Virus record (IMG/VR): IMGVR_UViG_3300025086_000278
Coordinates: 1-22,314 of that record
Direction: 5' to 3' (one strand)
Source: a virus
DNA length: 22,314 nt
Within the stretch, counting starts at the first letter, position 1. Each line of letters begins with the position of its first letter. Below the pieces are notes generated by a model. It saw only the letters and a list, made by a program, of their open reading frames with translations. It did not search any database and was not told where the DNA came from. Made by a program: the position numbers and the translations under genes. Positions 2,551 to 12,144 of the stretch are shown piece after piece.

Positions 2551-2872
2551 GGATCAAGACTTTTTAGATGCGGATTTTAAAAACATTATGTTTGAAAAGT
2601 ACGGCAAAAAATGGACAGAGTTTCAGGAGCAAGAAGTAAAAAGAATAGAAGAAGAACAGTTAGTATCAATAGATAACGTAATATTTGAACCTATGCCTAA
2701 AAGACCGTTTCCGCGTGATAAGTATATTTATGAAGACGAAAGGTTTAATTCTAAACAAGATATGATTTATTTAAATAAATTAGGAAGAACTATTGAAATT
2801 ACATCTTGTTCATTTATTTTGTTAGCTTTGCTAGGATGTATAGGGGTTTTAGTTTGGGCAAAGTTTTTATGA
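2531..2872 (+). CDS. Tail-anchored membrane protein (113 aa)
   Basis: I do not recognise the family. The product is highly charged for about 85 residues (coiled-coil-like EFQEQEVKRIEEEQ, then a Pro/basic stretch MPKRPFPRDKY), followed by a single C-terminal hydrophobic helix (FILLALLGCIGVLVWAKFL) with almost nothing after it, so it is predicted to be tail-anchored with most of the protein in the cytoplasm. I chose the ATG at 2531 over an upstream in-frame TTG at 2513. The TGA stop overlaps the ATG of the CsgF-like gene (ATGA), so its expression is coupled to the curli module. Confidence 0.68.
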   Translation: MTKEKTEDQDFLDADFKNIMFEKYGKKWTEFQEQEVKRIEEEQLVSIDNVIFEPMPKRPFPRDKYIYEDERFNSKQDMIYLNKLGRTIEITSCSFILLALLGCIGVLVWAKFL

Positions 2873-3333
2873 CTGACTGGGATAAATACTTAGCAATAGC
2901 AGGTATTGTAGTAATTTTATTAGTTGTTGCTACAAGTGCTACAGCAGATGAAATGACTCACAAGTTTAAGAATCCAAGTTTTTCAGGTGTTGGCACATCA
3001 AGTCATTACTTAACTATAGAGAATCAAGAGGCTACGAGAAAACAAGCGATTAAAGATGAGATACAAGCACTTAAAGATGAGATAGAAAGAGAAAAAGACA
3101 ACACAGTAGAAGCTAGATTTATGAGGAACTTAACATCTAGAATTTATGCAAACTTAGCTAGACAGATAGAAGATAATTTATTTGGCGAAACAAAATCTAA
3201 TTTTGGCTCAATGGTGCTAGAAGGAAACACTATTGAGTATGAAATAAACGAAGAAACAGTCACAGTAAGAATAACAGATGAAGAAGGAAATGTTACAGAA
3301 ATCAGTGTTCCTGTGGGCAGTTTTACTTTCTAG
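2869..3333 (+). CDS. csgF: CsgF-like curli assembly factor
   Basis: The 154-aa product has a signal peptide (hydrophobic residues 8-21, likely cleavage after Ala26 in SATA-DEM). The mature N-terminus reads MTHKFKNPSFSG, closely matching the start of mature E. coli CsgF (MTFQFRNPNFGG): the M-T-x-x-F-x-N-P-x-F pattern is kept. In E. coli this peptide inserts into the CsgG barrel and forms a second constriction. Residues 55-80 form an extra charged helical segment. The C-terminal part (RIYANLARQIEDNLF, then EYEINEETVTVRITDEEGN) matches the helix and beta-hairpin region of the family. Known role: it sits at the cell surface on CsgG and helps fibre nucleation. ATG 2869 is preferred over an upstream TTG at 2806, because it yields a clean signal peptide and an ATGA overlap. 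The 3' end overlaps csgG by 56 bases. Confidence 0.85.
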   Translation: MTDWDKYLAIAGIVVILLVVATSATADEMTHKFKNPSFSGVGTSSHYLTIENQEATRKQAIKDEIQALKDEIEREKDNTVEARFMRNLTSRIYANLARQIEDNLFGETKSNFGSMVLEGNTIEYEINEETVTVRITDEEGNVTEISVPVGSFTF

Positions 3334-4093
3334 TTGTTCAATAATGATAGACCCTCTAGAGAATAATCTTCCACCAACGGAAAGAACTAAAACAGCAGTT
3401 GTTGACGCTCTGTACACAGACTTAGCTTATGTGTTAGAACCAACTAGAAAACCAGTAATCGCTGTGTATGCTGAGAACTTTACAGATCAAACAGGACAAC
3501 GCAGATCCAACAGTACATACGCAACATTTAGTACAGCAGTTACACAGGCTCCTCATGCATACTTAATAAGAGCATTAAAACAAGCAGGTGTTGAAAATGA
3601 TGGATTTTTTGAAGTAGTTGAGCGAGTTTCTCTAGATGCAGTAACAAAAGAAAGACAGTTGATAAGATCAACAAGGGAAACATTTGATGAAGATCAAAAA
3701 TTAATGCCATTAAAATTTGCTGATATGATAATGACAGGAGGAGTACTGTCTTATCAAGCAAACACAGCTAGTGGTGGAACAGGAGCAAGATATTTAGGAA
3801 TCGGTTTGTCAAAACAGTACAGATCAGATACACTTACTGTAGGTTTACGAACTGTGTCAGTAAGTACAGGAAAAGTATTGATAGAAGTTTTAGTAACTAA
3901 AACTATTCTTTCTGTTTCTTTAGACAACGATATATTTAGGTTTATCTCTGAAGGAACGGAATTAGTAGAGATAGAAGGGGGTTCAGTTAAAAATGAACCA
4001 ATTAGTATTGCTTTGCAAATGGCAATAGAAACAGCTGTTCTTGAGACGATAAAAGAAGGTGTTAAGAACAACTACTGGAGGTTAAAAGAATGA
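3278..4093 (+). CDS. csgG: CsgG-like outer-membrane curli secretion lipoprotein
   Basis: Clear CsgG homologue of about the usual length (271 aa). It has a lipoprotein signal with lipobox LLSSC (Cys20), then the CsgG fold. The block SGGTGARYLGIG (residues 165-176) followed by TVGLRTVSVSTGK and TKTILS...IFRFI is nearly the E. coli pattern, and the C-terminal EPISIALQMAIETAV helix also matches. Known role: nine subunits form an outer-membrane beta-barrel channel for curli subunits. The constriction loop (residues 74-84) keeps the Phe before STAV (Phe84, E. coli mature Phe56) but lacks the Tyr51 and Asn55 equivalents and has one extra residue. The start at ATG 3278 gives a basic n-region (MKKEMLQK); ATG 3290 is an alternative. 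The whole signal peptide is encoded inside the end of csgF. The stop overlaps the next ATG (ATGA). Confidence 0.93.
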   Translation: MKKEMLQKSVFLWAVLLSSCSIMIDPLENNLPPTERTKTAVVDALYTDLAYVLEPTRKPVIAVYAENFTDQTGQRRSNSTYATFSTAVTQAPHAYLIRALKQAGVENDGFFEVVERVSLDAVTKERQLIRSTRETFDEDQKLMPLKFADMIMTGGVLSYQANTASGGTGARYLGIGLSKQYRSDTLTVGLRTVSVSTGKVLIEVLVTKTILSVSLDNDIFRFISEGTELVEIEGGSVKNEPISIALQMAIETAVLETIKEGVKNNYWRLKE

Positions 4094-4803
4094 AAAAACT
4101 TTTACTATTATTAATGTTGTCTACACCTATGTTTGGAGCAGACAACGAAATTTACATAGACCAGAGTTCAGGGTCTAGTAATTCAAATTTTGATTTTGAA
4201 CAGTTAGGCTCAGGCAACCTTATCGGTGGAACTACAGCTGCTGCAGGTTCTATGACTGCACTAGACTTAGATGGCACAGTTATGACATTGGACATAAATC
4301 AAATAGGAAACACAAATAAATTCTTAGGAGATATTTGGGCAGACAATTACATAGGATTTTTTGAGTTTGATGGAGACACAAACACTTTTAATATGCAAAC
4401 AGATCCAAGTAATACGTATGGGGCAGATGGTTCTAATGTCAATGTTGATGTAACAGGAAGTACAAACACATTTACTTTAAATCATGCAACAACTGCTTTA
4501 GCAGGAACTCTTGATCTAGACTGGATAGTTAATGGTTCAAGTAACACTATAACAGCAGGAGTTAATGTAGATGGTGCGACTAACTACATTAATTTGGATG
4601 GAAATGACAACGCAGTTACGTATGCTGGAACTGGATACGCAGGTGGTTATTTCTGGCTAGATCATGATGGTTCTAATCGTACATTTAACATAACACAGGC
4701 ATCTACACAAGACAATGACTGGCTCAAAGTTCAGAGTGTTGGTACTACTACTAGCACTGTTTGTATCATTCAAAACGACCAAGGTACAGGCACAAGTTGC
4801 TGA
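4090..4803 (+). CDS. Secreted curlin-repeat-like protein (putative CsgA/CsgB analogue)
   Basis: The 237-aa product has a signal peptide (MKKLLLLLMLSTPMFGA, cleavage near Ala17) and then about nine strand-turn units with the pattern G-x-x-N-x-hydrophobic: GSSNSNF, GSGNLI, GNTNKF, GDTNTF, GSTNTF, GSSNTI, GATNYI, GNDNAV and GSNRTF. Some carry the Gln expected in curlin repeats (EQLGSGN, NQIGNTN). Known: curlin repeats stack as a beta-solenoid amyloid and are exported unfolded through CsgG. Spacing here is looser than in CsgA, so it may be a curlin relative or a solenoid that is not amyloid. Two Cys lie near the C-terminus (225 and 237). It directly follows csgG, whose product would be its exporter. 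The last 89 bases also encode the signal peptide of the FecR protein in another frame. Confidence 0.75.
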   Translation: MKKLLLLLMLSTPMFGADNEIYIDQSSGSSNSNFDFEQLGSGNLIGGTTAAAGSMTALDLDGTVMTLDINQIGNTNKFLGDIWADNYIGFFEFDGDTNTFNMQTDPSNTYGADGSNVNVDVTGSTNTFTLNHATTALAGTLDLDWIVNGSSNTITAGVNVDGATNYINLDGNDNAVTYAGTGYAGGYFWLDHDGSNRTFNITQASTQDNDWLKVQSVGTTTSTVCIIQNDQGTGTSC

Positions 4804-5833
4804 TATAGGAAATATCAGTGAATTAAATGGCAATGCTCAAGTTGTCAGGGATAAACCATACGGAGCAGAACTAGCTTTTCCAATACAACAGTTAGACAAT
4901 ATAAAAACAGAAGGGGGAAAGTTAGCTGTTACTTTTGTTGATGAAACTATCGTACGTGTTATGCCACACAGTAAACTCGTGATTGATTCGTATGTGTACG
5001 ATGCAAACCCTAATAAATCAGAAATGGCACTACGTTTTGCATCAGGTACTGCAAGATTTGTTACAGGTAAATTTAATAATAAAAAAGCTATACACATAAA
5101 AACGCAAAGTGCTGATGTGTTTGTAAGAGGAACAGATTTCACAATCACAACAACACCAGAAACAGGTTCATCATTAGTTATACTTTTACCAGATAAATAC
5201 GGAAACCCTTCTGGTGAAATATTGGTAAAAACAGCTATGGGTGAGGTATTACTTAATCAAGCATTTCAAGCAACAACTACGCAAACATACAATCAATCTC
5301 CTTCTAAACCAGTTATACTCGACATCAGTCTTGATCTTATAGACAATATGTTGATAGTAAATCCACCAAGAGAAACAGATGCATCGTTACAAGAAACTCA
5401 ATTACAAACTACAGCAGATTATTTAGATTTTTCAGATTTAGATGTAGATTTTTTAGCAGAAGATTTTCTAGATAACGAAGCTGACCTAGAGTTTACAGAA
5501 TTAGACATAAACTATTTAGATGTAAATTTTCTTGAAGATTTATTAAATATTATAGATGCATTAGCTATATCAGAAGAAGAGGATCAGCTTAAACAAGGTG
5601 GTGTAGGTATTCGTATTGCTGGAACAGAGATAGGTCAAGACAAAGCTACGCAAATAACAACGATAATAACAGGTCAGATAATTAGTCTGCGTAGAAATGT
5701 AGGAGAATCTGTCAGACTTGATTTAGATGGTTCTAATGCTTATACTGTTATTCTTTTTCAAAATGGAGTAGAAAACATAGTTAAGGTGAACGGAGGTTCT
5801 TCTAACACAATAACAATTAAACAAGGCAGTTGA
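4715..5833 (+). CDS. Secreted FecR-domain protein with acidic repeats and curlin-like end
   Basis: The 372-aa product has a signal peptide (VLVLLLALFVSF, cleavage after VQA, residue 26). Residues about 33-160 form a FecR domain: ELNGNAQVVR, IQQLDNIKTEGG, VTFVDETIVRVMPHSKL, then RFASGTARFVTGK and KTQSADVFVRGTDF are the hallmark blocks. Residues 235-285 are very acidic and Leu/Phe-rich, with a two-copy unit FSDLDVDFLAEDFL / FTELDINYLDVNFL of period 21. The C-terminus (DLDGSNAYTVILFQNG and NGGSSNTITIKQ) resembles the curlin-type turns of the upstream gene. Known: periplasmic FecR domains transmit envelope signals, and FecR proteins are often encoded beside CHASE2 cyclases. ATG 4715 lies inside the previous gene; it is the only start that supplies the full signal peptide. 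The stop overlaps the cyclase ATG (TGATG). Confidence 0.88.
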   Translation: MTGSKFRVLVLLLALFVSFKTTKVQAQVADIGNISELNGNAQVVRDKPYGAELAFPIQQLDNIKTEGGKLAVTFVDETIVRVMPHSKLVIDSYVYDANPNKSEMALRFASGTARFVTGKFNNKKAIHIKTQSADVFVRGTDFTITTTPETGSSLVILLPDKYGNPSGEILVKTAMGEVLLNQAFQATTTQTYNQSPSKPVILDISLDLIDNMLIVNPPRETDASLQETQLQTTADYLDFSDLDVDFLAEDFLDNEADLEFTELDINYLDVNFLEDLLNIIDALAISEEEDQLKQGGVGIRIAGTEIGQDKATQITTIITGQIISLRRNVGESVRLDLDGSNAYTVILFQNGVENIVKVNGGSSNTITIKQGS

Positions 5834-7572
5834 TGAAAAAAATAATTTTTATATGTTTACTTGTAATTTTTACGATACCTGTAGTTAATCAGTCAACAGT
5901 TTTAGATGTATTGAAACTAAAAACTTTTGATGCTTTTGTACCTAAACAACAACCTTCAGGGTATTTTACAATACTAAACATAACAGAAGAAGACATAACT
6001 AATGAAGGTGGCTACCCTTTATCAAGACAAACTTTAGCACAAATACAAATAAATCTTTTACGAAAAGGTGCTATAGGTGTGGGGTGGGTTGTTGCATTCC
6101 CTCAACCTGATCGATTTGGTGGCGACCTTGAGTTTACTGAAGCACTCTCATTCGCACCAAGTGTGTTAGCTATGTACGAAAACGACACCAATGAGTACCC
6201 AGCTACAACAGGCACAGTTATATTAGGCGAGGATGTTGGTGGCATCGAAGCTCAAGGAGTTGTACAAAATATAGACGTACTAAAGCATAATGCAAGTCAA
6301 GGATTAGCTGTTGCAAGAGCAGATGTAGACAGCTTAGTTCGTAGACTGCCTTTACTGTTGCGAACACCAGATGGTTGGGCACCAGCATATGGAACAGAGG
6401 TTCTTAAAATACTAGCAGGTGCTGATACATATGTTATAAAGACTAATCAAAACGGACTCGAAGAAATAAGAGTTAAAGGTTTGCCCCCTGTTCCTGTAGA
6501 TTCGCTAGGTCGTAAATGGGTAAGTTGGGTAGACACACCACAAACAAATTTAAAAGAAATGGATGTGGAAAATAAATTTGTGTTCGTAGGTTTTACAGCA
6601 AAAGGAATCATGCCACAGATTGCTACACCTGCTGGTTTACTAGAACCACATAAAATACAAACTGCACTCGCAGAGTCAATACTCATAGAAAATAGTCCAT
6701 ACATACCTGATTATGCTGTAGCTGTTGAACTTTTGATTTTATTCTCAACAGTTTTGTTAGTTTGGTCACTAATCACATATTTAGGTACAACTACAGGTGT
6801 TTTCGCAGCAGTTTTGATTATGGGCAGCACAGTTTTTTATGGCTACTGGACAATACAACAAAATATTTTAGTAGATGTTACATGGTCGTTGATAAGCCAG
6901 TTTGTAACAACAACTGTAGCTTTTTACTTGCGTTTTAGAGAGCAATACAAACTAAGACAACAGATAAAGAAACAGTTTGAACACTATCTTGATCCAAGAC
7001 AAATTAAAGAATTACAGAAAAATCCTGATTTATTACAGCTAGGTGGTGAAAAAAGATACTGTACGTTTTTATTCACAGATGTGCGTGGTTTTACAGCTAT
7101 GTCTGAAAAATTAGAACCAGAAGAAGTAACTAAAATTATGAATAAGGCTCTTACAATACAACAAGAAGCTGTTCAAAAATATGGTGGTATGGTCGACAAG
7201 TACATTGGTGACGCAATGATGGCTATTTTTAATGCACCCCTCGACTTAGAAGAACATGAGCATAAGGCTGTTCTTACAGCAATAGAGATACAGAAAAATA
7301 TTAAAGAAGCAGATATAGGTGTAGAGATTGGAGTTGGTGTAAACAGTGGTTACGCAGTTATAGGTAACATGGGAAGTGCTTCTAGGTTTGATTACACAGC
7401 TATAGGTGACGCTGTTAATACAGCAGCACGTTTTGAGAGTGCAACTAAACAAGTCGGTGTAGATTTAATTATAGGTGAAAGCACTAAACAAAACTGTAAA
7501 ATTAAGCTAAACTTATTAAACCCTATAGAAGTAAAAGGTAAAAGTAAGTCATTGGAGATATATACGCTATGA
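5833..7572 (+). CDS. CHASE2-domain class III adenylate cyclase
   Basis: This membrane-bound cyclase has 579 aa. An N-terminal membrane segment (IIFICLLVIFTIPVV) is followed by a CHASE2 periplasmic sensor domain to about residue 290, three membrane helices at about 294-315, 320-340 and 345-366, a linker (REQYKLRQQIKKQFEHYL), and the cyclase domain from about 405. Numbered from ATG 5833, the metal-binding Asp416 (FTDVRGFT) and Asp460 (KYIGDAMM), adenine-specifying Lys456 and Thr522 (DYTAIGDAVN), and transition-state Asn529 and Arg533 are all present. It should therefore make cAMP rather than cGMP. Known: CHASE2 senses envelope signals, and FecR proteins are common partners. The ATG overlaps the FecR stop; a TTG three bases upstream is not needed. 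Its TGA overlaps the holin ATG. A phage-encoded, apparently active, membrane cyclase is unusual. Confidence 0.93.
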   Translation: MKKIIFICLLVIFTIPVVNQSTVLDVLKLKTFDAFVPKQQPSGYFTILNITEEDITNEGGYPLSRQTLAQIQINLLRKGAIGVGWVVAFPQPDRFGGDLEFTEALSFAPSVLAMYENDTNEYPATTGTVILGEDVGGIEAQGVVQNIDVLKHNASQGLAVARADVDSLVRRLPLLLRTPDGWAPAYGTEVLKILAGADTYVIKTNQNGLEEIRVKGLPPVPVDSLGRKWVSWVDTPQTNLKEMDVENKFVFVGFTAKGIMPQIATPAGLLEPHKIQTALAESILIENSPYIPDYAVAVELLILFSTVLLVWSLITYLGTTTGVFAAVLIMGSTVFYGYWTIQQNILVDVTWSLISQFVTTTVAFYLRFREQYKLRQQIKKQFEHYLDPRQIKELQKNPDLLQLGGEKRYCTFLFTDVRGFTAMSEKLEPEEVTKIMNKALTIQQEAVQKYGGMVDKYIGDAMMAIFNAPLDLEEHEHKAVLTAIEIQKNIKEADIGVEIGVGVNSGYAVIGNMGSASRFDYTAIGDAVNTAARFESATKQVGVDLIIGESTKQNCKIKLNLLNPIEVKGKSKSLEIYTL

Positions 7573-10681: not shown

Positions 10682-11044
10682 ATGGAACCATTTTATTACA
10701 ATTGCACATTAGACAGAGTCATAGACGGAGATACGATAGATGTTAATATTGATTTAGGTTTTGATGTAATACTGTCTAAACAACGTGTTCGTTTAGCTGG
10801 TATAGATACTCCAGAATCTAGAACTAGAAACTTAGCAGAAAAAGCACTAGGATTAAAAGCAAAAGAAAGATTAATAGAACTATGTGGTAAAAAACTTCAA
10901 GTCAAGTCTTTAGGGAAGGGTAAGTATGGCAGGATTCTTGGCATACCTCACACGATAGACGGAGAAGATATCTGTGCTATGCTTATAGATGAAGGGCATG
11001 CCGTAGAATATTGGGGTGGTACTAAAGTTAAGGTCTGGGGATAA
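10682..11044 (+). CDS. Thermonuclease-like (SNase) nuclease
   Basis: The 120-aa protein is a compact staphylococcal-nuclease-type domain. Seen against SNase: Asp17 in IDGDT (SNase Asp21), Arg37 in RVRLAG (Arg35), Asp42 and Glu45 in GIDTPE (Asp40, Glu43) and Arg84 in YGRILG (Arg87). All metal-binding and catalytic residues are present, so it should be an active Ca-dependent nuclease cleaving DNA or RNA. There is no signal peptide, so it acts in the cytoplasm or is packaged. Possible roles are host DNA breakdown or attack on competing DNA; neither can be chosen from sequence. It is the last gene of the left operon and is followed within a few bases by a terminator. Confidence 0.92.
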   Translation: MEPFYYNCTLDRVIDGDTIDVNIDLGFDVILSKQRVRLAGIDTPESRTRNLAEKALGLKAKERLIELCGKKLQVKSLGKGKYGRILGIPHTIDGEDICAMLIDEGHAVEYWGGTKVKVWG

Positions 11045-11083
11045 AAAACGGAGTCCATAAATCGCTTCCACGGACTTTTTTTA
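11045..11083. terminator. Bidirectional rho-independent terminator between convergent genes
   Basis: A stem GAGTCC (11051-11056) pairs with GGACTT (11072-11077), with five Watson-Crick pairs plus one G-T pair and a 15-base loop. On the plus strand it runs into seven T (11076-11082). On the minus strand the flanking A6 at 11043-11048 becomes a U6 tail. It therefore ends the left operon after the nuclease gene and can also stop transcription from the minus-strand protease gene. The stem is short, so strength is uncertain. Confidence 0.72.
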
Positions 11084-11108: not shown

Positions 11109-11843
11109 CTAACAGGAGTCTTTTGCTATAAGTCTACCTGTTTTAATCAGGTACTTTATATCCCCAACTGTTAAGTCTTGTACATTTTCTATTAGATACT
11201 TAGCTTTTACAGAACTAAAACGACCTAACTCAGTGTGTCCTTTTACATCTTGTACCACATCTTGTATCTCACGTAAAATCCATTCGACTCTAGTAGTCTT
11301 GCCTTTTGTGTAATATGTACTAGATCTGCCCATGGGTACACGCACTGAAGTGTTTTCTAAAAAATCGTAGTCTTTAGGTTTTTTAGCATTAGTTAGTGTA
11401 ATTTTTATACGCTTACATTTTTTCTCGTACTTGCTGTCTTGTAAAGATTTAAAGTCTATGTTACGCTCTCGCAACGATGCACTTAGTTCTTTATATGTAG
11501 GTTTATCTGGGTGAAAGTTTTTAAGTAAAGCACAGAAAGTTGTTACAAAAACTGGTCCATGTTTACACTCATCTGCTAACAGATGAGCATACTCGTGAAG
11601 TACAACAGACCAGCATCTTGCCCAAGATCTAGGCAGAGTAATAATGTTGCCCCAAGCTTGAGCTGTTGCATTTTGATGTCTCCTGTTGCTGAACCTAACA
11701 GTGGTTGGCTTACGTTTTAATTTAGTATCTAATTGTTTGATTATATGTAAAACTTGAGTGTCGTCTAGTTCGTTTTTACTCTTACCACTCCAACTTGCTG
11801 CGTTTTCCCAAGCATACACTTTAGATCTTTGTTTATCTCTCAT
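11109..11843 (-). CDS. HExxH metalloprotease, TIGR04338/SprT-like
   Basis: The only minus-strand gene. The 244-aa product carries a zinc protease signature: VVLHEYAHLLA gives His83, Glu84 and His87, and HGPVF gives His95 as the likely third ligand, the HExxH...HG..F spacing of SprT-like and related phage peptidases. The N-terminus MRDKQRSKVYAWENA resembles, from memory, the TIGR04338 family of phage and actinobacterial metallopeptidase-like proteins. The C-terminal half is Lys/Arg-rich and not recognised; it may bind DNA or a partner. There is no signal peptide, so it is cytoplasmic. The start ATG has AAGGA seven bases upstream (minus strand, in 11851-11857) and its own promoter candidate. 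Separate, opposite transcription suggests a different timing, perhaps early; targets could be host or virion proteins. Confidence 0.8.
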   Translation of the reverse strand: MRDKQRSKVYAWENAASWSGKSKNELDDTQVLHIIKQLDTKLKRKPTTVRFSNRRHQNATAQAWGNIITLPRSWARCWSVVLHEYAHLLADECKHGPVFVTTFCALLKNFHPDKPTYKELSASLRERNIDFKSLQDSKYEKKCKRIKITLTNAKKPKDYDFLENTSVRVPMGRSSTYYTKGKTTRVEWILREIQDVVQDVKGHTELGRFSSVKAKYLIENVQDLTVGDIKYLIKTGRLIAKDSC

Positions 11844-11852
11844 AATATTTTC

Positions 11853-11899
11853 CTTTCTTGTTTCTTAATACACTTATCATACTTTATTGTACAAGAAAG
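11853..11899. repeat. 9-bp inverted repeat flanking the minus-strand promoter
   Basis: CTTTCTTGT (11853-11861) and ACAAGAAAG (11891-11899) are perfect reverse complements separated by 29 bases. One arm overlaps the ribosome binding site of the protease gene; the other overlaps its -35 candidate. The layout would suit an operator for a dimeric regulator or an mRNA structure, but only sequence symmetry supports it. Confidence 0.45.
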
Positions 11900-11903
11900 T
11901 AAA
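11876..11903 (-). promoter_or_regulatory. Sigma70-type promoter candidate for the protease gene
   Basis: Read on the minus strand, TTTACT (11903-11898; 4 of 6 to TTGACA) and TATGAT (11881-11876; 5 of 6 to TATAAT) are separated by 16 bases. Transcription would begin near 11869, leaving a leader of about 26 bases with the AAGGA ribosome binding site. It is the only non-coding region upstream of this gene. Confidence 0.55.
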
Positions 11904-11929
11904 GGAGTTTTTTATTTCAATGTTTTTTA

Positions 11930-11958
11930 TTTATTATTCTGGAGTTTTTAAGTATGAT
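11930..11958 (+). promoter_or_regulatory. Promoter candidate for the right-hand virion operon
   Basis: TATGAT at 11953-11958 (5 of 6 to the sigma70 -10) is followed by AAG and lies 17 bases after a weak -35-like TTTATT at 11930-11935 (3 of 6). Transcription would start near 11965, about 75 bases before the first gene. Because the -10 block is identical to that of the divergent protease promoter, a phage-specific recognition element is an alternative. No other non-coding space large enough for a promoter exists in the right half. Confidence 0.45.
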
Positions 11959-12039
11959 AAGAGTACAGTATATTACTGCAGCTTTTCAGGTACAGCAAAT
12001 AGCCTGCTCAAAATAACTAACATATAAGTGGAGAATAAT

Positions 12040-12144
12040 ATGCCTGGAATGAGAAGTAGAAGAGAAACGATTAGAGCAGGAAAAGACTGGTCTAAAGGTC
12101 AATACGCAGAAGACAAAAAGAACAAAAAATCTAAGAAAAAATAA
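12040..12144 (+). CDS. Very basic 34-aa protein at operon start
   Basis: The ORF begins with ATG at 12040, preceded by TGGAG six bases upstream, a good ribosome binding site, and ends in a TAA that overlaps the next ATG. The product starts MPGMRSRRETIRAGKDW and ends KKNKKSKKK, with about half of its residues charged. It could be a nucleic-acid-binding peptide, a virion DNA-condensing peptide or a leader for translational coupling. No family is recognised. The strong ribosome binding site and coupled stop are the main support. Confidence 0.6.
   Translation: MPGMRSRRETIRAGKDWSKGQYAEDKKNKKSKKK

What the first reader, a model, noticed from the sequence alone, without database searches (positions are those of the whole stretch)
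11109..11843. Lone reverse-strand metalloprotease splitting the structural genes
A HExxH protease with its own promoter and shared terminator interrupts otherwise one-directional late genes. A basic, unrecognised C-terminal half is attached to the protease part. Its isolation suggests separate timing and perhaps recent insertion. It might degrade host regulators, DNA-bound proteins (as SprT-like enzymes do) or act as a defence or counter-defence factor.
Basis: partly seen in the sequence, partly recalled or inferred. Interest (0 to 1): 0.5.

Follow-up and report, generated by a model that had tools for sequence, protein, structure and literature searches.

The report
Optional zinc protease in marine phages
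A marine phage carries, backwards among its virion genes, an optional gene for a small zinc-dependent protease whose tail half has been swapped between related phages; it probably cuts a protein of the infected bacterium, but its target is not known.

Summary
A 244-aa HExxH protein is encoded on the minus strand between virion genes, with its own promoter-like site (TTTACT-N16/17-TATGAT, seen in 21 of 22 loci; the other is cut by its contig end) and a convergent terminator.

Two inferences fail. Recent insertion is not supported: composition is ordinary, both halves look purified by selection, and the gene spans a whole sub-lineage. Separate timing is untested, and the only other match to the promoter pattern in the window faces the neighbouring structural operon.

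The gene is not fixed: of 84 contigs on a tree, 27 carry it and 57 do not; two of the 57 (L029, L030) look like clean deletions inside a carrier clade. A virion-maturation role is therefore unlikely.

The protein is a distant SprT-like/TIGR04338-type zincin, below both curated cut-offs, though an orthologue just passes Pfam SprT-like. Its C-terminal ~90 residues are exchangeable: the nearest relative is 90-98% identical in flanking genes but 55% there, while more distant phages are 84-91%.

Best reading: an accessory infection-time protease whose swappable C-terminal module selects a host or DNA-bound target. Target and timing are inferred.

The parts
11109..11843 (-). Accessory zinc metalloprotease gene, 244 aa
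   Evidence: homologues; model pLDDT 86.2
11496..11843 (-). Catalytic module, about residues 1-116, with N-terminal signature D3, Q5, Y10, W12, E13
   Evidence: these residues in 27 of 27; fold match to SPRTN/Wss1/abylysin mainly over residues ~23-116
11583..11597 (-). HEYAH (HExxH, residues 83-87)
   Evidence: H83, E84, H87 in 27 of 27 members
11559..11561 (-). Third putative zinc ligand, His95 of the HG motif
   Evidence: 27 of 27 members
11112..11381 (-). Exchangeable C-terminal module, about residues 155-244 (boundary approximate, residue ~140-160)
   Evidence: identity break and tree conflict
11851..11855 (-). Ribosome-binding site AAGGA
   Evidence: sequence; AAGGA also before the start in relatives
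11876..11903 (-). Protease promoter-like site TTTACT-N16-TATGAT
   Evidence: seen in 21 of 22 loci
11930..11958 (+). Divergent promoter-like site of the downstream structural operon, TTTATT-N17-TATGAT
11869..11965 (.). 16-nt inverted repeat (11869-11884 / 11950-11965) holding the two -10 regions
   Evidence: 94% complementary
11052..11076 (-). Convergent terminator hairpin between SNase and protease
10682..11044 (+). Neighbouring SNase-type nuclease, the other optional gene of the site

Best explanation
The gene encodes an accessory, cytosolic, SprT/TIGR04338-like minimal zinc metalloprotease. An N-terminal catalytic module carries HExxH plus a third His. A C-terminal module, exchanged by recombination between phages, probably selects the substrate. 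The gene is transcribed from its own sigma-70-like promoter, back to back with the downstream structural operon, and its product cleaves a host protein or a DNA-bound protein during infection, such as a defence component, a nucleoid or transcription factor, or a DNA-protein adduct.

SHOWN by sequence: catalytic signature, conserved promoter-like site, terminator hairpin, optional presence with two contigs that fit a clean loss, low dN/dS, mosaic C-terminal module. INFERRED: transcription from that site, proteolytic activity, cytosolic location, substrate choice by the C-terminal module, a host target, benefit to the phage.
For: H83, E84, H87 and H95 in 27 of 27 members.
TIGR04338 profile matches the window protein and 10 of 10 further members tested, all below its cut-off. 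Orthologue L160 passes Pfam SprT-like, 26.0 vs 25.6.
Model pLDDT 86.2; residues ~23-116 align with SPRTN 6mdx (Z 5.8, rmsd 2.7, 89 residues), Wss1 5xbv (5.4) and abylysin (6.0).
Promoter-like site in 21 of 22 loci.
Optional: of the 80 stabilization-protein relatives kept, 13 carry the gene, 57 do not and 10 are undecided. On the tree (27 carriers, 57 non-carriers) the state needs at least 4 changes, 3 forced by starred branches. L029 and L030 lack about 0.86 kb found in L160, with flanks 87-89% and 98.4-98.5% identical.
C-module exchange: window vs L011 is 90% in residues 1-115 and 55% in 116-244, with flanking genes 90-98%; vs L005/L006/L007 it is 71-80% and 84-91%. The C-part rejects the clade {window, L011} (p-AU 2e-47); the N-part does not (p 0.33).
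dN/dS 0.09-0.36.
No signal peptide or membrane segment is apparent (own reading).
Against: No substrate, activity or expression data. Fold Z values are all under 8 and thermolysin-type chains score nearly as high (5.3), so the fold comparison places it only among HExxH zincins; Foldseek gave no PDB match with E under 0.001. The C-terminal module resembles winged helices only weakly (Z up to 6.0 to MetAP2, 5.3 to the winged helix 2yu3). No PADLOC profile matches the protein. In one search the N-part also fails to reject grouping the window with L005/L006/L007 (p 0.19), the C-part tree supports that group only at 27/0 and carries a long-branch warning, and the groups were named after the identities had been seen; the case for exchange rests mainly on the C-part rejection and on sliding identity. 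The promoter pattern was likewise written after both sites had been seen (2 of 100 shuffles reach two matches).
Confidence: 0.45

Rival explanations
1. It is a Spartan-like enzyme that clears proteins cross-linked or tightly bound to DNA during phage replication or packaging, with the C-terminal module as DNA-binding part.
For: SPRTN and Wss1 are among the top fold matches. The protein is basic throughout, pI 9.75. In some other phages the relative lies near DNA genes: a RuvC-like resolvase and an SbcC-like gene within about 1 kb in L142, an integrase/invertase-type recombinase directly downstream in L132 (a similar ORF, by eye only, in L133 and L134), and a SNF2 helicase about 1 kb away in CcrBL9. 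An SNase is beside it here.
Against: Rapid C-terminal exchange is not expected of a housekeeping repair enzyme. Two close relatives lack the gene. The C-terminal fold was not resolved as DNA-binding. The neighbours named were picked out of 17 contexts viewed and were not tested against chance.
Confidence: 0.25
2. It is a late protease that processes a virion or ejection protein, since it lies just before further structural genes.
For: Position between the stabilization-type protein and the following structural genes; promoter-like site back to back with that of the structural operon.
Against: L029 and L030 lack the gene yet keep the start of the downstream structural gene at about 98% DNA identity to carrier L160. 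55 further contigs keep both flanking structural genes without it. The catalytic module is SprT-like.
Confidence: 0.1
3. It cleaves a transcription regulator, in the manner of IrrE on DdrO, to switch host or phage transcription.
For: PprI/IrrE chains appear among the fold matches (best Z 4.0); the C-terminal part is weakly winged-helix-like.
Against: Low Z; no repressor and no integrase was recognised among the 19 window proteins scanned with Pfam and/or PHROGs.
Confidence: 0.12

Closest known systems
SprT-like family (Pfam PF10263), including SPRTN and Wss1
   Same: HExxH followed by HG-x-x-F; minimal zincin core; SPRTN and Wss1 are among the best fold matches
   Different: Window protein scores 13.8 bits against a cut-off of 25.6 (orthologue L160 passes with 26.0); N-terminal DxQxxxxYxWE signature; no CxxC pair, so no SprT-type zinc ribbon (ribbon recalled); exchangeable C-terminal module
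TIGR04338 family metallohydrolase (HEXXH_Rv0185)
   Same: Best NCBIfam match for the window protein and the 10 other members tested; some relatives align over almost the whole model (L139 positions 1-143; Hydrogenophaga 1-149)
   Different: All below the 90-bit cut-off; C-terminal extension of about 100 residues
SprT-like proteins of other phages
   Same: Phage-encoded SprT-like domain; named matches in BFVD and MPC00488 of mycobacteriophages in PMC12363180 (passages read)
   Different: Weak similarity (named SprT-like BFVD rows at E 0.013 or worse); other phage groups
ArdC antirestriction protein
   Same: HExxH zincin joined to a second domain on a mobile element; fold Z 4.6
   Different: Opposite domain order (ssDNA-binding domain first); its protease activity was reported not to be needed for antirestriction (PMC7213743, passages read)

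Membership tests
SprT-like (PF10263) | HExxH plus downstream His (HGxxF) | tested here: met
   H83, E84, H87, H95 and F99 in 27 of 27 aligned members; G96 in 26 of 27
SprT-like (PF10263) | Score over Pfam gathering cut-off | tested here: not met
   Window 13.8 vs 25.6 bits; orthologue L160 26.0 (met); L124, L013, L135 and L145 below; no SprT-like match listed for L132, L139, L144, L148
SprT-like (PF10263) | C-terminal zinc ribbon of SprT proteins (feature recalled) | tested here: not met
   No CxxC pair in the 244 residues (by reading)
TIGR04338 | Score over the curated 90-bit cut-off | tested here: not met
   31.2 bits; 10 of 10 other members 19-30 bits; 0 of 11 records over the cut-off
TIGR04338 | N-terminal region of the model shared, beyond the HExxH stretch | tested here: inconclusive
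   Window aligns from model position 61; relatives L139 and Hydrogenophaga align from position 1
SPRTN/Wss1 DNA-protein-crosslink proteases | Same protease fold | tested here: inconclusive
   Z 5.8 and 5.4, tied with other zincins and under 8
SPRTN/Wss1 DNA-protein-crosslink proteases | DNA-dependent proteolysis | not testable with these tools
   needs biochemistry
ArdC | N-terminal ssDNA-binding domain before the protease domain | tested here: not met
   Family signature begins at residue 3 and HExxH lies at 83-87; ArdC domain order from PMC7213743
IrrE/ImmA | Fold and regulator partner | tested here: inconclusive
   best Z 4.0; no regulator partner identified in the calls made
Virion maturation protease | Conserved in phages with the same virion genes | tested here: not met
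   57 of 84 tree rows lack it at the same site

The most novel reading that the evidence does not exclude
A phage counter-defence protease with an interchangeable targeting module: a constant SprT-like catalytic half is re-armed by swapping C-terminal modules between phages to follow changing bacterial defence proteins.
Probability: 0.25. Interest if true: 0.7.

Novelty: new variant of a known kind. Interest (0 to 1): 0.35.

Why it matters
SprT-like and TIGR04338 genes occur in phages and bacteria, and for those met here no substrate is known to me. Natural gains, losses and module swaps between close phages provide ready-made comparisons: the same catalytic half with different C-terminal halves, and similar phage backbones with and without the gene. 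These make substrate choice testable. If the target is a defence protein, this would be a modular anti-defence protease.

Tried and rejected
Recent insertion: GC 0.363 and GC3 0.273 against 0.337-0.432 and 0.148-0.282 for the other genes compared; not supported.

Conserved leader element near 11976-12007: no Rfam match at gathering threshold in the window and one chance-level match (E 2.3) in the region. In an IMG/VR scan (76 stretches) the element with the same surroundings was seen only in this phage group; the other matches lay in ORFs of 80 aa or more, except L153, which has unrelated flanks. A pseudoknot reading is compatible (90.4% of cells paired, slid versions at most 50%), but covariation is slight: one pair with changes on both sides, reached in 214 of 500 shuffles.

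Cultured phages: tblastn at E 1e-5 found none. At E up to 10 only 5 weak records, the best two being one Caulobacter phage at E 3e-3. Queries L160 and L124 and L135 gave 4, 0 and 0 records at E 0.1. The four cultured relatives viewed at the site (HTVC023P, DSL-LC04, HTVC027P, CRP-902) have no reverse gene annotated from the stabilization-type protein to the end of the stretch shown.

PADLOC: no match for the window protein. PDB sequence profile: one irrelevant hit, HemD, E 0.019. PHROG 4851 (E 0.002 over residues 123-232, unknown function) was not listed for the nine other family members tested. The C-terminal fold was not identified. Foldseek of the whole model found no PDB match with E under 0.001.

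Limits: carriers came largely from searches with the gene itself and from the leader-element scan; non-carriers came from the search with the stabilization protein, of whose 362 confirmed relatives only the best 80 were kept. So the tree's 27 and 57 are not prevalence; within those 80 the split is 13 with, 57 without, 10 undecided. Of 96 rows, two (L027, L028) repeat the contigs of L117 and L118 and were dropped before the tree, and 10 undecided rows were left out; nine carriers (L016-L020, L022, L024-L026) were not entered because the same contigs, or near-identical ones, were already in or not needed. The tree is a quick one with 84 rows (66 different) and a midpoint root, so it does not tell gain from loss. 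The N-terminal signature and the HExxH stretch were each used as search patterns in part of the retrieval, so their invariance is partly by selection.

Papers: the TIGR04338 search listed one paper (passages of PMC12803027 read). SprT + phage + metalloprotease listed 18 (passages of PMC12363180 read). ArdC + antirestriction + metalloprotease listed 12 (passages of PMC7213743 read). PMC9599517 was searched for protease, endonuclease, SprT, peptidase and cyclase terms without a hit. Searches (6 papers; 10 of 208 listed; 1, again PMC12363180) showed nothing on this gene in their listings.

Full report
WHAT IS THERE. The window is a 22,314-base virus record. On its minus strand, 11109-11843, an ATG-started ORF of 244 aa lies between forward genes. 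Upstream on the plus strand are a stabilization-type virion protein (phrog_3287, E 7e-74), a 109-aa ORF and an SNase (PF00565). Downstream the next large ORF starts at 12144. The protein has HEYAH at 83-87 and HG at 95-96.

IS IT A REAL GENE. Close relatives occur in 14 IMG/VR loci and wider ones bring this to 44 loci. In 27 aligned members H83, E84, H87 and H95 are present in 27 of 27, and so are D3, Q5, Y10, W12 and E13; part of this invariance reflects the search patterns. dN/dS over six pairs is 0.12-0.25 for residues 1-150 and 0.09-0.36 for 151-244, with dS above 1 in several comparisons.

ITS CONTROL REGION. TTTACT-N16/17-TATGAT ends 31-34 nt before the start codon in 21 of 22 loci (9 distinct sequences); in L125 the contig ends within the site. 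Four carriers with an extra 110-112-aa ORF in front of the protease (L120, L123, L124, L129) have the same site 34 nt before that ORF. In the window the pattern TTTAYT-N14-18-TATRAT, written after both sites had been seen, occurs twice, both times in this intergenic region, one facing each way; shuffles average 0.29 and 2 of 100 reach two. The two -10 regions lie in a 16-nt inverted repeat. This gives the protease its own promoter-like site but offers no reason to expect timing different from that of the structural operon. Expression was not testable. The terminator hairpin between SNase and protease folds with z -3.05 on the protease strand and -2.13 on the other, and a hairpin with different letters stands at the same place in L124 and L130 (by eye). 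In L160 and L163 the two genes overlap by 17 nt instead.

OPTIONAL, NOT RECENT. Loci found through the stabilization protein, through the protease and through the leader element were classified at the site. Of 96 rows, 29 carry the gene (27 contigs), 57 do not, 10 are undecided. Of the 57, 55 also lack the SNase and two (L029, L030) have the SNase without the protease. L014 and L015 have the protease without the SNase. Among the 80 loci alone the split is 13 with, 57 without, 10 undecided. On a quick tree of 84 stabilization proteins (27 with, 57 without) the protease state needs at least 4 changes, 3 forced by well-supported branches, against a mean of 22 for shuffled labels. L029 and L030 form a fully supported group with carriers L160, L162 and L163. 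Compared with L160 they lack about 0.86 kb, from just behind the SNase stop to within the promoter region: nearly the whole ORF, its ribosome site and the -10; flanks are 87-89% and 98.4-98.5% identical. The tree cannot by itself tell gain from loss, but a deletion is the simplest reading. Composition of the gene is ordinary. Four cultured relatives viewed have no reverse gene annotated at the corresponding place.

A SWAPPED C-TERMINAL MODULE. Against L011, which with L021 is nearest to the window by the stabilization protein, the window is 90-98% identical in six flanking genes and 90% in protease residues 1-115, but 55% in 116-244. Against L005, L006 and L007 it is 71-80% in the N-part and 84-91% in the C-part; DNA identity per 60 columns jumps from 70-87% (first block 98% for L005) to 92-98% near residue 160, while against L011 it drops from 83-100% to 42-68% from about residue 140 on. 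The C-part rejects a window+L011 clade (lnL difference 73.7, p-AU 2e-47); the N-part does not (p 0.33), though it does not reject window+L005/L006/L007 either (p 0.19), and the C-part support for the latter group is only 27/0, with a long-branch warning. The groups were named after the identities were known. Recombination inside the gene is the natural explanation.

WHAT KIND OF PROTEIN. TIGR04338 is the best NCBIfam match (31.2 bits, cut-off 90) and matches 10 of 10 other members tested, all below the cut-off. Pfam SprT-like gives 13.8 bits for the window (cut-off 25.6) but 26.0 for orthologue L160. The AlphaFold model (pLDDT 86.2, pTM 0.78) aligns mainly over residues ~23-116 with abylysin (Z 6.0), SPRTN (5.8, rmsd 2.7 over 89), Wss1 (5.4) and, less well, ArdC (4.6) and IrrE/PprI (3.9-4.0). 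All are under Z 8, and thermolysin-type enzymes reach 5.3, so only the zincin class is secure. In the viral library three unnamed proteins match at E under 0.001 and several named SprT-like phage proteins match weakly. The C-terminal module alone (pLDDT 72.8) gives only weak winged-helix-like resemblances. I therefore describe it as SprT/TIGR04338-like without filing it as a member of either curated family.

HOW IT PROBABLY WORKS. The architecture (constant catalytic half, exchanged second half), dispensability, own promoter-like site and lack of an evident signal peptide (own reading) fit an accessory enzyme that acts inside the infected cell on a variable partner, most simply a host protein. 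Counter-defence and clearing of DNA-bound proteins are the two leading versions. Neighbourhoods of distant relatives in other phages include DNA recombination genes (RuvC-like and SbcC-like in L142, recombinase next to L132; SNF2 helicase near the match in CcrBL9), but these are examples from 17 contexts viewed, without a statistical test. A maturation role is disfavoured because phages with very similar structural genes lack the gene.

NOVELTY. Phage SprT-like genes are in print (PMC12363180, passages read), and TIGR04338 genes are reported on Mycobacterium avium linear plasmids (PMC12803027, passages read). The listings showed nothing on this gene. The exchangeable C-terminal half in this marine phage lineage is the new element.

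Noticed in passing
window 2806-7572: Phage-borne curli-type secretion and signalling cassette: CsgF (E 8e-20), CsgG (E 5e-47), FecR (E 6e-11) and a CHASE2 + nucleotidyl cyclase protein (E 5e-23 / 7e-21) in one forward run. In L005 and L012 ORFs of about 770, 370 and 130 aa without a match to window proteins stand at the corresponding place. Papers joining pelagiphages with CsgG and curli exist (listing and abstract starts only).
   Followed up: partly
window 11976-12007: Conserved 32-nt leader element CTGCAGCTT...AGCAA...CCTGC before the downstream structural operon, seen with the same surroundings only in this phage group in one IMG/VR scan, also in L029 and L030, which lack the protease; compatible with a small H-type pseudoknot, little covariation, no Rfam match.
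   Followed up: partly
window 12040-12144: Conserved basic 34-aa ORF (MPGMRSRRETIRAGKDWSKGQ...KKK) whose stop overlaps the start of the 12144 gene by one base; a 34-35-aa version is seen in ten of the loci, the window included.
   Followed up: partly
window 10682-11044: The SNase beside the protease is strongly conserved (79-98% in the ten relatives compared that have it), while the protease beside it is among the less conserved genes.
   Followed up: no
L124:5666-6004, L120:1598-1930, L129:4139-4477, L123:884-1222: In four carriers an extra 110-112-aa ORF precedes the protease with a 4-nt overlap and has the promoter-like site in front of it; for L124 no family match beyond a weak DUF7771.
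   Followed up: partly
L132:7150-7953, L133:7150-7953, L134:6723-7514: In distant relatives the protease gene is followed directly by a recombinase-like gene (L132: integrase and DNA invertase profiles; L133 and L134 judged by eye from similar starts).
   Followed up: no
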